Part shown: piece by piece, positions 18,706-36,873 of the stretch | How positions within the stretch are numbered: the first letter of the stretch is position 1 | Layout of the letters: each line of letters starts with the position of its first letter | Origin: Ensifer oleiphilus | GTDB taxonomy: Bacteria > Pseudomonadota > Alphaproteobacteria > Rhizobiales > Rhizobiaceae | DNA length: 64,000 bases | Assembly: GCF_013371465.1 (NCBI RefSeq) | Contig: NZ_JABWDU010000005.1 | Location: forward strand, 186,001 to 250,000 | Reading direction: 5' to 3' | The notes under the pieces: model-generated | What the model saw: only the letters and a program-made list of their open reading frames with translations | Database searches by the model: none | What the model was told of the DNA's origin: nothing | Translations under genes and position numbers: made by a program

Positions 18706-18840
18706 AATCAAACAACGCCCGCTGGGGGAGGAGATCCAGCGAGCGTCGTTTTGTTCTGATCGGCAACTGGGAGGAGGAGTGCTGCCGATCCAAATCGAGG
18801 GGCGCTGGGAGGAGGAGTGCGCCGCCCCGATCGATGAGTT
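18706..18840 (-). ncRNA. Anti-SD small RNA, alpha-r14/cuckoo (NfeR1-like), copy 1
   Basis: Read leftwards, the sequence folds into three hairpins. The first two have the loop ACTCCTCCTCCCA. The third, with loop TCTCCTCCC, is closed by CGCTGG/CCAGCG and followed by a T-rich run at 18705-18714, so it doubles as a terminator. CU-rich loops of this type complement Shine-Dalgarno sequences. The three-hairpin form and size match the Sinorhizobium alpha-r14 RNAs (Smr14C/NfeR1) and the cuckoo RNA family. The 5' end is approximate. Confidence 0.85.
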
Positions 18841-18989: not shown

Positions 18990-19119
18990 GAAACGAATAA
19001 CGCCCGCTGGGGGAGGAGGTCCAGCGAGCGTCATTGAAAGTGATTGGCAACTGGGAGGAGGAGTGTTGCCAATCGTATCGGAGGGGCGCTGGGAGGAGGA
19101 GTGCGCCGCTCCGAATTCC
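18990..19119 (-). ncRNA. Anti-SD small RNA, alpha-r14/cuckoo (NfeR1-like), copy 2
   Basis: This is a second copy, about 150 bases upstream of copy 1 on the same strand. The middle hairpin is perfect over 10 bp (GATTGGCAAC/GTTGCCAATC) around the loop ACTCCTCCTCCCA. Base differences from copy 1 in the stems are compensatory, which supports structural conservation. The last hairpin ends in TTATTCGTTT. The two copies have different upstream regions and so may answer to different signals. Confidence 0.85.
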
Positions 19120-26810: not shown

Positions 26811-27122
26811 CTAGAACAGGCGCAGCCCTTTCAGGCTGACATGGCCATCCTTGCCGATGATGATGTGATCATGCACCGCGATGCCGAGCGGTTTGGCCGT
26901 CTCGACGATCAGCTTGGTCATGTCGATGTCCGCCCGCGACGGTGTCGGATCACCCGAGGGATGGTTATGCGCTAGGATAAGCGCTGTCGCCGATAGTTCG
27001 AGCGCACGCTTGACGACCTCGCGCGGATAGACCGGCGTGTGGTCGATCGTGCCGGTCTGCTGAACCTCGTCGGCGATCAGCGCATTGCGCTTGTCGAGAA
27101 ACAGGATGCGAAACTGTCGCAA
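26811..27122 (-). pseudogene. radC: radC remnant: C-terminal JAB/MPN domain
   Basis: The 103 codons correspond to the C-terminal part of RadC, starting at the conserved [11 protein letters not shown] strand. The JAMM motif HxHx7SxxD is intact (H52, H54, S62, D65). The usual 275-residue protein should have a helix-hairpin-helix domain and about 170 more N-terminal residues. These are missing because phage sequence begins at about 27123. The open frame starts with a TTG without a clear RBS. Expression of the remnant is possible but unproven. Confidence 0.85.
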
Positions 27123-33567: not shown

Positions 33568-33805
33568 GATTCACTCCTCTTGGATGCATCCGACTCGCGA
33601 ATTGTACCACTGCAACCAGAACCGGAGATGAACAGGCTATCGGCGCTTGAGCCACGGCTCTCGTGTGCGCCGGGCTCCCTTCGGGTCGAGGTAGCCGCTT
33701 TTCGTTTTCATGATACAAGATTTGTAGCCGACGCTGCGTCGTAAAATCTATTTGACGACTCCGTCATTTCAACCCATATATGTGACTAGTCGGCTGATGG
33801 ACGCG

Positions 33806-33928
33806 ACTTGGCCTCTATGGGGCCTTGCCTGACGCTGGCTTGAGGCGAAAGCCTCTCTTGGCGAAAGCCAGGTGGCGGTGAGAAATACACCAATCAAAAG
33901 AGGTCGTGCGAAAGCGCGGCCTTTTTTG
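33806..33928 (+). ncRNA. Candidate structured RNA with three GAAA-capped hairpins
   Basis: Four consecutive stems are visible: GGCC/GGCC near 33810-33824; GAGGC-GAAA-GCCTC (33842-33855); CTTGGC-GAAA-GCCAGG (33857-33872); and AGGTCGTGC-GAAA-GCGCGGCCT (33901-33922), which runs into TTTTTTG and is a terminator. Three identical tetraloops in 90 bases is unusual. No reading frame explains the region. It lies just upstream of the tRNA but on the other strand. Confidence 0.5.
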
Positions 33929-34026
33929 TTGTTCTGTTTCGAAATGAATCGGGCGGGGCAATGTCGCGAACCCCGCCCGATGTCCAACCCACTCCTCTTC
34001 AGCGTAAGATACGCTTAATTTCGTGG

Positions 34027-34116
34027 TGGCGGTGAGTGTGGGATTTGAACCCACGGGACCCGCGAAAGTCCGCCGATTTTTCAGGTCGGTGCAATAGACC
34101 GCTCTGCCAACCCACC
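34027..34116 (-). tRNA. Class II, serine-type tRNA with GAA (Phe) anticodon
   Basis: The cloverleaf is complete: acceptor GGTGGGT/ACTCACC (one G-U), D-arm with A14, GG and A21, T-arm GTGGG-TTCAAAT-CCCAC, an 18-base variable arm with a GGAC/GTCC stem, discriminator G and encoded CCA. Long variable arm, G73 and D-arm are those of tRNA-Ser. The anticodon loop is CTGAAAA, so U33 is followed by GAA (34080-34082), which reads Phe codons. The closing pair 31-39 is a C-A mismatch. SerRS ignores the anticodon, so the RNA could put Ser at UUY codons; it may instead be decayed or a decoy. Confidence 0.85.
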
Positions 34117-34311
34117 GTTGCGAATATAAATGGCAGCTTGATTACGGTTTTGCAATGGTGCCGCGCACGACTTGTCTGAGTTGTCCCTAGTCATTTCATG
34201 CAGGCAATCAAATCACGCACATGACCAAGCTATCAACGCTTAAGCCTCGCCTCTCATCCGCATCGCATACCATCTCCAAGGCAGAGATGGTCACGTGCGA
34301 TGTAGTCGCCT

Positions 34312-34680
34312 ATGCCGCGTAAGCCACCATCATTCAAGCCAACCACACAGCGCACCAAGGTCGAGCGCAAACGCGAAGCTGACCGCAGGCGCCACAGTGA
34401 GCCATGGCGAGCATGGTATGGCACGGCTAGATGGCAGGCGTTGCGCGAGGCCCAGCTATCTGCCCATCCTATCTGCGTGATGTGTCTGGACAACGATGAG
34501 ACCATCACCTCAGCCGAAGTATGTGACCACCTCACGCCACATCGAGGAGATGAGGTGCTGTTCTGGTCTGGACCGTTCCAGTCCCTTTGCTCTGCTTGTC
34601 ACAACGGCAGGAAGCAACGCGAAGAGCGCATGCATTCAATACGAATAGACATCAATGATATCAATGCCTTGCTCGAGTGA
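34312..34680 (+). CDS. Phage HNH endonuclease
   Basis: The 122-residue protein has the HNH layout: CxxC (CVMCLDNDET), the core CDHLTPHRGDEVLFW near residue 70, CSACHNGRK near 93. Small HNH proteins next to terminase in HK97-type phages help cut cos sites. It directly precedes the terminase genes, which supports that role. The basic N-terminus should bind DNA. Confidence 0.88.
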   Translation: MPRKPPSFKPTTQRTKVERKREADRRRHSEPWRAWYGTARWQALREAQLSAHPICVMCLDNDETITSAEVCDHLTPHRGDEVLFWSGPFQSLCSACHNGRKQREERMHSIRIDINDINALLE

Positions 34681-34778
34681 TGGGAGGGGCGACCCGCATC
34701 GCCCCCTCGGTCGGCTGCCTTACCGGCGGCCTAAGCAATTTTTCCCGTCCGCAAAATTTGAAATTTGGAGATGGCACC

Positions 34779-35162
34779 ATGGCAAGGCCGAGGAAGCCGA
34801 CGGCTGCCCTCGAGTTGAAGGGTGCCTACAAGAAGGATCCGCAGCGAAAAGCCGAGCGGAAGGACGAGCCTAAGCCGTCCGGTGCTGTCGGGCTTGCGCC
34901 TGATTTCTTCGACGCTGATGAGCGGCTGATTTGGGATGATCTGGCGGGGTTTGGCTTTTGGCTGACTGACGCGGATCGGCTCATGCTCGAGATCGCCGTC
35001 AAGCTCATGTCCATGTTCCGGAAAGGAACGTTGGACGGCGGGGGTATATCCAAGCTGATCACCGCGCTTTCGAAATTGGGTTTCAGCCCGACCGATCGCA
35101 GCAAGGTCCAGGCGCCAGGCGCCAAGGAGCCTGAAGCGGATCCATTCGCAGACTTTAAGTGA
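34779..35162 (+). CDS. Terminase small subunit, P27-like
   Basis: The 127-residue protein starts at the ATG at 34779, which has a GGAG RBS; the frame extends upstream to 34677. The N-terminus MARPRKPTAALELKGAYKKD followed by a basic linker and an IWDDL helix pattern is typical of P27-family small terminases, which recognise phage DNA for packaging. Confidence 0.82.
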   Translation: MARPRKPTAALELKGAYKKDPQRKAERKDEPKPSGAVGLAPDFFDADERLIWDDLAGFGFWLTDADRLMLEIAVKLMSMFRKGTLDGGGISKLITALSKLGFSPTDRSKVQAPGAKEPEADPFADFK

Positions 35163-35166
35163 GATC

Positions 35167-36873
35167 ATGGAAATCGATGTCGAGAAGCATCCGCACGTCG
35201 CGGCAGGATATTCCTATGCCTTAGACGTGGTTGCTGGCCGCATATCGGCTTGCGAGTACGTCAAGCAGGCTTGCCAGAGACAGTTGGATGACTTGGCAAG
35301 GGCCGCTGAAGGGTGGGCCTACTATTTCGATCACGATGCCGCGCAGAAGGTCTGCACGTTCACATGCTTTCTGCCGCACATCAAAGGCCCGCTGGCCGGC
35401 CAGAACCTGACGCTCGAGCCGTGGCAGTCTTTCATCCTCACTACCGCATTCGGCTGGCTGCGCCACGATAATGGCAAGCGCCGCTATCGGCGAGCATACA
35501 CCGAGGTGCCGAGGGGCAACGGCAAGACGACCCTTTCGGACGGCCCCGCGCTCTATTGCGGCTTCGGCGAGAAGGAAGGCGGCGCGGAAGTCTATTCCGC
35601 GGCACGAACGCGTGACCAGGCGAAGGTAGCCTTTGCGGCAGCGCAGGCAATGCTACGGCGCGCCACCGGACTGCGGAACGCCCTTGGCATAGACGTTGAG
35701 GCGCACCGCATCATTCAGATGCGATCGAATAGTTATTTCGAAGCCCTATCGGCCGACGCTGACTCGCTCGACGGTAAGAACGTCCACTTTGCACTTATCG
35801 ACGAGTTGCACGCCCACCGCGATCGTAGCGTTTATGACGCTATCGAGACCGGCGCAGGCAAGCGCAACCAGTCGATGGTCTGGGCCATTACGACGGCCGG
35901 CGCTGACAAGACGGGCATTTGCTACGAGCATCGTGCCTACACGATCAATCTGCTGAAGAAGACCGCCGAAGACGACACGTACTTTGGCATCATCTACACG
36001 ATCGACAAGGACGACGACTGGACGGAAGAGTCGACGTGGCGGAAGGCCAATCCGAATTATGGTATTTCGGTCGAGCCGGAGCACGTAGCCGCCCTGTGCC
36101 GCAAGGCGATGTCGTCGCCAGCTTCGCAGGCGAACTTTCTGACCAAGCATTTGAACGTCTGGATCCAGACGAACGAAGCGCTTTACGACATGCGAGCATG
36201 GGATAGATGCTTCGACGAGGATCTCGATATCGAGGACTTCGCTGGTCATCCGTGCCGCGTGGCTGTGGACTTGGCGTCAAAGGTAGATATCGCGGCCGTC
36301 GTTGCTTTGTTTGAGCGCGATGGCAAGATCTACCCGTTCGCCAAGTTTTACGTCCCGGAACAAGCAATTCTTGAGAGCCGGAATGACTCCTACAAAGGGT
36401 GGGAGGCGGAAGGCAAGTTGATCGCGACGCCAGGTGACGTGATCGACATCGACCGCATTGAGGCCGACATCATCGACTTATCAACGCGGTTCGAGGTTCT
36501 CGAGATCGCGTATGACCCATGGCAGGCGCAACAGATGGCCAACCATCTTGTTGAGCAGGGAGCGAACGCTGTCGAGTACCGACAGACGGTCCAGAACTTC
36601 TCGGAGCCAACCAAGGAATTGGACGCGCTTATGCGCTCCAACAAATTGGCACACAACTCCGGCCCGCGGGACCCGCTGTCGTGGATGATCGGCAACGTTG
36701 TCGGCCATTACGACGCGAAAGAGAACGTCTACCCGCGCAAAGAACGGCCAGAGAACAAGATCGACGGCGCGATTGCCCTCATCATGGTTCTCGGGTTGCA
36801 CCTGCGTGCGTCCGGCGGAGTGCAAGCTCCATCTCCATGGGAAAATCCCGAATTCAGAATTGCCGTCGTGTGA
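35167..36873 (+). CDS. Terminase large subunit
   Basis: This is the packaging ATPase and nuclease. The 568 residues include a Walker A-like VPRGNGKTTL near 117 and Walker B VHFALIDELHAH near 210. The C-terminal RNase H-like nuclease domain has its first acidic residue at VAVDLASKVD near 365. It starts four bases after the small subunit stop. Confidence 0.95.
   Translation: MEIDVEKHPHVAAGYSYALDVVAGRISACEYVKQACQRQLDDLARAAEGWAYYFDHDAAQKVCTFTCFLPHIKGPLAGQNLTLEPWQSFILTTAFGWLRHDNGKRRYRRAYTEVPRGNGKTTLSDGPALYCGFGEKEGGAEVYSAARTRDQAKVAFAAAQAMLRRATGLRNALGIDVEAHRIIQMRSNSYFEALSADADSLDGKNVHFALIDELHAHRDRSVYDAIETGAGKRNQSMVWAITTAGADKTGICYEHRAYTINLLKKTAEDDTYFGIIYTIDKDDDWTEESTWRKANPNYGISVEPEHVAALCRKAMSSPASQANFLTKHLNVWIQTNEALYDMRAWDRCFDEDLDIEDFAGHPCRVAVDLASKVDIAAVVALFERDGKIYPFAKFYVPEQAILESRNDSYKGWEAEGKLIATPGDVIDIDRIEADIIDLSTRFEVLEIAYDPWQAQQMANHLVEQGANAVEYRQTVQNFSEPTKELDALMRSNKLAHNSGPRDPLSWMIGNVVGHYDAKENVYPRKERPENKIDGAIALIMVLGLHLRASGGVQAPSPWENPEFRIAVV

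What the first reader, a model, noticed from the sequence alone, without database searches (positions are those of the whole stretch)
34027..34116. Serine-type tRNA with a phenylalanine anticodon in a prophage
The sequence folds as a full class II tRNA with an 18-base variable arm, G73 and Ser-like D-arm, but the loop reads CTGAAAA, giving GAA. Counting bases from E. coli tRNA-Ser(TGA) leaves no ambiguity about the anticodon. SerRS is known to use the variable arm and G73, not the anticodon. So the tRNA could decode UUY with serine, mistranslating host or phage proteins, or act as a decoy for anticodon nucleases. The C31-A39 mismatch might lower efficiency.
Basis: partly seen in the sequence, partly recalled or inferred. 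Interest (0 to 1): 0.85.

Follow-up and report, generated by a model that had tools for sequence, protein, structure and literature searches.

The report
Serine-type tRNA with matching small RNA
A bacterial prophage carries a serine-type tRNA that would read phenylalanine codons, next to what looks like a small RNA gene whose sequence matches the end of that tRNA; the same pair, with other wrong anticodons, recurs in other phages, which suggests a two-RNA device that meddles with translation.

Summary
In detail: window 34116..34027 (-) is a class II tRNA gene with G73, encoded CCA and anticodon GAA. It scores as Ser, not Phe; the host keeps its own tRNA-Phe and four tRNA-Ser genes. On the other strand (33803-33927, +), ending 99 nt beyond the tRNA, lies a predicted terminator-ended RNA with the exact complement of the tRNA's 3' end (GGUGGCGGUGAG). 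Eight distinct pairs were found (anticodons GAA x5, GTA, CAA, TAG; none Ser). The complement follows each phage's own acceptor stem (55 of 56 positions); in L346 the small RNA is flipped relative to the tRNA yet still complementary. The pair sits in different places (terminase, tail genes, repressor). 0 of 90 other viral stretches with the same 5' scaffold have the small RNA. Best reading: a serine-charged, wrong-anticodon tRNA restrained by a dedicated complementary RNA, perhaps an addiction or infection-abort device. Expression, charging and toxicity are untested here. The wider set of Ser-type GAA tRNAs (67 distinct) is mostly imperfect copies and proves little.

The parts
34027..34116 (-). 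Ser-type class II tRNA, anticodon GAA, G73, CCA encoded
33803..33927 (+). predicted small RNA core (no Rfam family), conserved at eight distinct phage loci
   Evidence: alignment A1; Rfam negative at gathering score and only sub-threshold matches
33871..33882 (+). GGTGGCGGTGAG, exact complement of the tRNA 3' end (CTCACC, G73, CCA and two trailer bases)
33857..33872 (+). hairpin CTTGGC-GAAA-GCCAGG, which shares its last two bases with the complement
33895..33928 (+). terminator-like hairpin of the small RNA, 15 pairs, then T run
33752..33780 (+). possible promoter of the small RNA (TTGACG, 17 nt, CATATA); inferred by eye, not found by the strict scan
   Evidence: negative
34127..34155 (-). possible promoter of the tRNA (TTGCAA, 17 nt, CATTTA); inferred by eye, not found by the strict scan
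   Evidence: negative
34312..34680 (+). HNH endonuclease (flanking phage gene, not part of the pair)
34677..36873 (+). terminase small and large subunits (flanking late genes, not part of the pair)

Best explanation
A two-RNA phage cassette. RNA 1 is a tRNA that the host's SerRS is predicted to charge with serine and whose anticodon reads a non-serine codon (UUY here; UAY, UUG or CUA in relatives), so that it would put serine at Phe, Tyr or Leu positions. RNA 2 is a small terminator-ended RNA whose complement of the tRNA's 3' end (acceptor strand, G73, CCA and, at most loci, two trailer bases) pairs with that tRNA and blocks its maturation, charging or use. Shown by sequence: the tRNA, its Ser features, the conserved second element, the complementarity that follows each tRNA, the two always together in what was searched, the changing genomic site. 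Inferred: transcription of both, serine charging, restraint of RNA 1 by RNA 2. Most speculative: the benefit, either addiction of the lysogen or abortive infection if the small RNA decays faster than the tRNA.
For: Eight distinct pairs; 55 of 56 acceptor positions of the small RNA are Watson-Crick complements of the own tRNA's 3' strand, with joint changes at pairs 3-70, 4-69, 5-68 and 7-66; own-pair match sum 98 reached by 4 of 40,320 permutations. In the window the tRNA has G5-U68 and the small RNA has A facing U68. In L346 the small RNA is on the same strand as the tRNA and still complementary over 13 nt. In a scan blind to the anticodon, 8 of 13 non-Ser tRNAs (7 distinct pairs) and 0 of 82 Ser tRNAs with the scaffold have it (Fisher 1e-8, not corrected for relatedness). 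All eight tRNAs score best as Ser; none has a Ser anticodon. Sites differ. The small RNA matches host tRNA ends over at most 7 nt, its own over 10 (mature) or 12 (with trailer). Ser-type tRNA with GAA is harmful in yeast (PMC6827378).
Against: No expression, charging or toxicity data here. The window pair is the weakest of the eight: 10 nt to the mature tRNA, and the computed duplex energy with its own tRNA end (-20.0) is no better than with several host tRNAs (Cys -27.1, Val -22.7, Gly -21.6). For L368 the own tRNA is not the best match (11 nt against 13 for L244). The UGGC that would meet CCA is predicted free over all four bases only in L168. The promoter scan finds no site at the expected place for either RNA. 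tRNA and small RNA are inherited together, so the permutation figure is not a clean probability. GAA could also attract PheRS.
Confidence: 0.42

Rival explanations
1. T-box-like attenuator: the small RNA is a leader with a terminator that senses this phage tRNA and controls the co-directional phage genes behind it; the tRNA is a dedicated signal.
For: The small RNA would pair with the tRNA's GCCA end, carries a terminator, and runs in the direction of the late genes at the seven distinct late-region sites.
Against: No T-box match in Rfam. The pairing extends through the acceptor strand. L168 (GAA) and L410 (TAG) share similar hairpins, so no codon-like part that follows the anticodon was seen, and no alternative antiterminator fold was seen; both judged by eye only.
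Confidence: 0.13
2. Sponge: the tRNA or its precursor soaks up a small RNA whose real targets are elsewhere.
For: Pairing includes trailer bases at most loci; tRNA-precursor spacers as sponges are a known idea (recalled; one search is a listing only).
Against: Does not explain the kept acceptor and T stems, G73, CCA and non-Ser anticodon in all eight.
Confidence: 0.1
3. tRNA-dependent lysogeny: the phage tRNA replaces a host tRNA of the same isotype broken by integration.
For: Described for actinobacteriophages (PMC10865867, abstract and one results section).
Against: The host keeps an intact canonical tRNA-Phe(GAA) and four tRNA-Ser genes; a truncated radC, not a tRNA, stands at the left side of the prophage (the exact prophage ends were not determined). 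Not checked for the hosts of the other phages.
Confidence: 0.04
4. Direct-repeat artefact: the second copy of the tRNA end is an attachment-site or duplication scar, and the small RNA is not real.
For: At seven of eight distinct loci the copy is a direct repeat, 105-158 nt on. No transcript has been seen.
Against: In L346 it is inverted; the hairpin and terminator beside it are conserved, with changes on both sides at 7 of 19 predicted pairs.
Confidence: 0.08
5. Ordinary phage tRNA: supplements Phe decoding or is a decoy for anticodon nucleases.
For: Phage tRNAs are widely seen so (PMC10264068, abstract start and one passage); the anticodon loop differs from that of the host tRNA-Phe in one base only.
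Against: Phe codons are not enriched: 3.36% in 16 chosen prophage reading frames, 3.64% in 9 chosen host frames. G73 and class II form disagree with Phe. The small RNA is unexplained.
Confidence: 0.12

Closest known systems
Allo-tRNAs (Mukai 2017, as told in PMC7609411, passages)
   Same: Bacterial tRNAs with SerRS identity and mostly non-serine anticodons; said there to insert Ser in E. coli; [quoted passage not shown]
   Different: Allo-tRNAs have 8/4 or 9/3 acceptor/T arms; this one is 7/5. No partner small RNA appears in the passages I saw
Engineered serine tRNAs with foreign anticodons in yeast (PMC6827378, section 14)
   Same: tRNA-Ser with anticodon GAA; slows growth and raises a heat-shock response
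   Different: Man-made, yeast, no antisense partner
RNA-RNA toxin-antitoxin pairs (SdsR/RyeA; CreTA)
   Same: Both partners are RNA and one restrains the other (abstract starts in listings; the label type VIII for them is recalled)
   Different: There the toxic RNA is not a charged tRNA; CreA works through CRISPR proteins
T-box riboswitches (recalled)
   Same: An RNA that pairs with a tRNA's NCCA end and carries a terminator
   Different: No Rfam match, no specifier seen by eye, pairing covers the acceptor strand
tRNA-dependent lysogeny tRNAs (PMC10865867)
   Same: Temperate-phage tRNAs
   Different: They replace a disrupted host tRNA of the same isotype; here the host tRNA-Phe is intact

Membership tests
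tRNA-Phe | anticodon GAA | tested here: met
tRNA-Phe | A73 and short variable loop | tested here: not met
   G73, 18-nt variable region
tRNA-Ser-like (SerRS substrate) | long variable arm, G73, G1-C72, G2-C71, C11-G24 | tested here: met
   sequence; rules from PMC9976931 passages, C11-G24 recalled
tRNA-Ser-like (SerRS substrate) | actual charging with serine | not testable with these tools
   needs RNA chemistry
allo-tRNA | 8/4 or 9/3 acceptor/T arm | tested here: not met
   7/5
allo-tRNA | Ser identity with non-Ser anticodon | tested here: met
   by sequence only
tRNA-dependent lysogeny | host tRNA of same isotype disrupted by the prophage | tested here: not met
   intact host tRNA-Phe L517
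T-box riboswitch | match to the Rfam family | tested here: not met
T-box riboswitch | specifier codon that follows the anticodon | tested here: inconclusive
   read by eye only
RNA-RNA toxin-antitoxin | two RNAs with extended complementarity, found together | tested here: met
   by sequence only; transcription not shown
RNA-RNA toxin-antitoxin | toxicity of one RNA, relieved by the other | not testable with these tools
   bench test needed

The most novel reading that the evidence does not exclude
A toxin-antitoxin module made only of RNA in which the toxin is a mischarging tRNA: a stable serine tRNA with an exchangeable wrong anticodon poisons the proteome at Phe, Tyr or Leu codons unless a dedicated, shorter-lived antisense RNA holds its 3' end; phages swap the anticodon while keeping the lock and key at the acceptor stem.
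Probability: 0.28. Interest if true: 0.92.

Novelty: new variant of a known kind. Interest (0 to 1): 0.74.

Why it matters
If true, it is a natural case where mistranslation itself is the weapon, with its own RNA antidote, and it gives a testable role to phage tRNAs whose anticodon and body disagree, which a common tool names by anticodon alone (here tRNA-Phe). It also offers a compact pair of RNAs for studying mistranslation under antisense control.

Tried and rejected
The control over position-35 anticodons on the same Ser-type scaffold gave GTA 10, GCA 7, GAA 7, TAA 5, TCA 4, CCA 3, ACA 1, CTA 1, CAA 1 of 39 stretches (some GTA and TCA hits may be genuine Tyr or Sec tRNAs), so GAA is not unique; a narrower control with G-N-C anticodons gave 1 stretch, not a tRNA, against 8 with GAA in the matching scan. 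The wide GAA set (75 rows, 67 distinct) is mostly imperfect: 18 of 67 have 7 of 7 acceptor pairs, 41 have G73, 10 encode CCA; many may be attachment-site or decayed copies, so I do not build on it. Of the 66 genome stretches, 55 are in these rows: 49 that ARAGORN calls tRNA-Phe(GAA), two with a doubtful loop (L273, L291) and four that it does not call (L253, L255, L269, L308); left out were eight Ser(TGA), L254, L275 and L262. Of the viral hits only those that ARAGORN calls class II GAA were kept (L146, L197, L210, L246 and L202, among others, were dropped).

A shared neighbour gene: in the gene comparison around the 75 loci the widest shared cluster is terminase-like and reaches 7 loci, but the pair also sits among tail genes and beside a repressor, so no protein partner was found. 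Relatives of the neighbouring HNH gene: 33 of 199 family genomes have one at E 1e-15; of the 19 non-own loci fetched, 0 carry the small RNA, and four carry other tRNAs. Model R1 in whole genomes: of 397 in the order only G000 (99 bits) and G366 (61.7 bits, an L346-type copy with the GTA tRNA) are strong; 106 further genomes have matches at E 0.01 or better, those listed at 35 bits or less, many covering only the terminator end; 1 of 240 in the class at E 1e-6, the own genome. A sampled genome search with position-35 variation was swamped by GTA (Tyr-like) tRNAs and gave no usable control. My first Fisher table undercounted; one search is the corrected one. Duplex energies, toehold accessibility and the promoter scan did not support the picture and are told above.

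Full report
What is there. Window 34116..34027 (-) is a complete tRNA gene with CCA. ARAGORN names it tRNA-Phe because of GAA. The rest is serine-like: class II arm, G73, G1-C72, G2-C71, D arm GCAGAG..TTGC. Aligned with the anticodon loop masked to the tRNAs of its own genome, it scores 102 with Ser(CGA), 90 with Ser(TGA), 62 with Tyr; Phe is not among the best seven. The C31-A39 mismatch is real; position 31-39 is also unpaired in L199, L244, L368 and L410, 5 of 8 with the window (read from the sequences).

Where it lies. The window is G000:C28:186001-250000 of a 6.76-Mb genome. The tRNA sits in a prophage, antisense to the late genes HNH, terminase small and large, portal. The host keeps a canonical tRNA-Phe(GAA) and Ser CGA, GCT, GGA, TGA (47 places, read). 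The exact 5' scaffold occurs in 1 of 297 genomes of the family, the own one. In the genus, 7 of 16 genomes have a blastn match, but only the own copy is full length; the others are at 77% over bases 8-90, and the one in the own genome is tRNA-Ser(CGA). So the gene is phage-borne rather than a standard host tRNA.

The partner. On the strand opposite to the tRNA, ending 99 nt beyond it, lies a conserved element: hairpins, several with GAAA loops, then GGUGGCGGUGAG, then a terminator-like hairpin of 15 pairs. Those twelve bases are the exact complement of CUCACC-G-CCA-CC, the tRNA's 3' end plus two trailer bases (33871-33882 and 34025-34036). Among 464 ARAGORN tRNAs of 82 nt or more in the loci then held (L369-L398 left out), a repeat of 12-16 nt within 105-165 nt downstream occurs in the 14 rows of this group, four of which repeat the window copy or its twin L183; four other rows reach 12-14 nt at other distances or on the other side.

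Family. Eight distinct pairs: window (= L183), L168, L199, L213 (= L258, Mesorhizobium sp. WSM3862) and L244 with GAA; L346 with GTA; L368 with CAA; L410 (and the near-identical L487) with TAG. None has a Ser anticodon. In the scan for the 5' scaffold with the anticodon left open, 98 stretches gave 95 ARAGORN tRNAs, 82 Ser and 13 not Ser; 8 of the 13 (L183, L199, L213, L244, L346, L368, L410, L487) have the small RNA, 0 of the 82. L168 has a slightly different D loop and is not in that scan. Model R1 was built from the eight, so its 61-123 bits on them are by construction; its use is the negative: 0 of the 90 other stretches at E 0.01. In the 67 sources the one further match above 20 bits, 36.7 in L177, lies over 5 kb from that contig's tRNA and looks like the end of a coding stretch with a terminator.

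Tracking. At the seven acceptor pairs of eight loci, 55 of 56 small-RNA bases are Watson-Crick complements of the own tRNA's 3' strand; the exception is position 7 in the window. Pairs 3-70 (L199), 4-69 (L213, L410), 5-68 (window) and 7-66 (L346) change together with the small RNA. The window case follows the 3' strand: tRNA G5-U68, small RNA A. The longest perfect complement to the own tRNA is the best or tied in 7 of 8 rows; L368 fits L244 and L168 better. 4 of 40,320 permutations reach the own-pair sum, with the caveat of shared inheritance. A direct repeat would explain seven loci, but in L346 the small RNA is on the tRNA's own strand.

Results against a simple picture. Duplex energies do not single out the phage tRNA in the window (own -20.0; of 40 host tRNAs Cys -27.1, Val -22.7 and five more at or below -20.1). 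The UGGC stretch is predicted open over all four bases only in L168, and is mostly paired in the window, L244 and L368. The promoter scan finds no site at the expected place for either RNA, although TTGAC stands upstream of the small RNA in 5 of 8 loci and TAGACA or TTGCAA with a 17-nt spacer upstream of the tRNA in 5 of 8 (by eye). Consensus folding supports one hairpin and the terminator only: 19 pairs, 7 with changes on both sides.

Mobility. The pair lies before the large terminase (window, L244, L368, L410 and, by gene size, L487), among tail genes (L168, L199, L213: tape measure, tail tube, distal tail) and 231 nt behind a CI-like repressor (L346). Nineteen fetched HNH relatives lack it. 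So tRNA and small RNA seem to travel as a unit without a common protein gene.

How it most likely works. Shown: the sequence facts above. From published rules (PMC9976931 passages): Ser identity does not depend on the anticodon, G73 repels LeuRS and TyrRS in E. coli, Phe identity includes A73. In yeast, a made tRNA-Ser with GAA, weakened on purpose, lengthens doubling time by 50%, more than those with Arg, Pro or Gln anticodons (PMC6827378, section 14). Inferred: serine goes in at UUY here too. The small RNA, complementary to the part of the tRNA that carries the amino acid, most simply restrains it. A stable effector with a separate regulator is the logic of addiction or abortive infection. 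The antisense position at seven sites, and the place behind a repressor gene in L346, would suit expression in the lysogen rather than in late growth; this is speculation.

What is known. Allo-tRNAs are serine acceptors whose anticodons span 35 of 64 codons in the account of PMC7609411 (passages), with an 8/4 or 9/3 body; the window tRNA is 7/5. RNA-RNA toxin-antitoxin pairs exist (abstract starts). I searched for a phage Ser-type tRNA with GAA, for mistranslating or chimeric bacterial tRNAs, and for a tRNA toxin with RNA antidote; from titles and abstract starts I saw no natural tRNA with a dedicated complementary small RNA. One search listed two tRNA papers with the string SerGAA; one is the yeast work, the other uses an unrelated substrate name. 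The library holds open PMC papers only. led to the lysogeny paper and to a S. meliloti survey that lists a prophage tRNA-Leu(UAG) (PMC11476347, passages), possibly of this kind; I did not see its sequence.

The wider GAA set. Of 66 stretches from a collection of 84,980 species genomes, ARAGORN tRNA-Phe(GAA) on a class II scaffold, besides the viral ones; most have broken acceptor ends, and in the 67 sources searched only the eight pairs and their copies gave a strong R1 match (not all of the 75 rows were searched with R1, though all held then were in the repeat test if ARAGORN called them). I treat them as background, not as members.

Noticed in passing
window 18710-18835 and 18995-19119 (-): Two alphaproteobacterial ar14 small RNAs side by side (104 and 120 bits).
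   Followed up: no
window 33989-34026 (-), tRNA trailer: The trailer of several cassette tRNAs holds a small hairpin followed by (A/G)AAGAGGAGTGG; the GAGGAG could pair with the CUCCUCC loops of ar14 RNAs.
   Followed up: no
window 26811-27122: The genome's only RadC-domain match is a truncated C-terminal part at the left side of the prophage; the prophage may have split radC.
   Followed up: partly
L414 and L473: Two viral contigs share one Ser-type scaffold with anticodons CTT and CAT, another case of a swapped anticodon, without the small RNA.
   Followed up: partly
L168 8267-8539 and L199 6561-6875: Related small genes end 22 and 44 nt before the tRNA; the L199 copy matches a PHROG repressor family (E 1.7e-6), neither has a Pfam match.
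   Followed up: partly
L267/L330, L295, L321, L185, L272: Ser-type GAA tRNAs that share an odd acceptor end (..ATT at 70-72, mispaired at 3-70), maybe attachment-site derived.
   Followed up: no
L176, L177, L230: Ser-type GAA tRNA antisense between a terminase-like gene and a gene of about 390 aa in another phage group, with a poor acceptor end.
   Followed up: no
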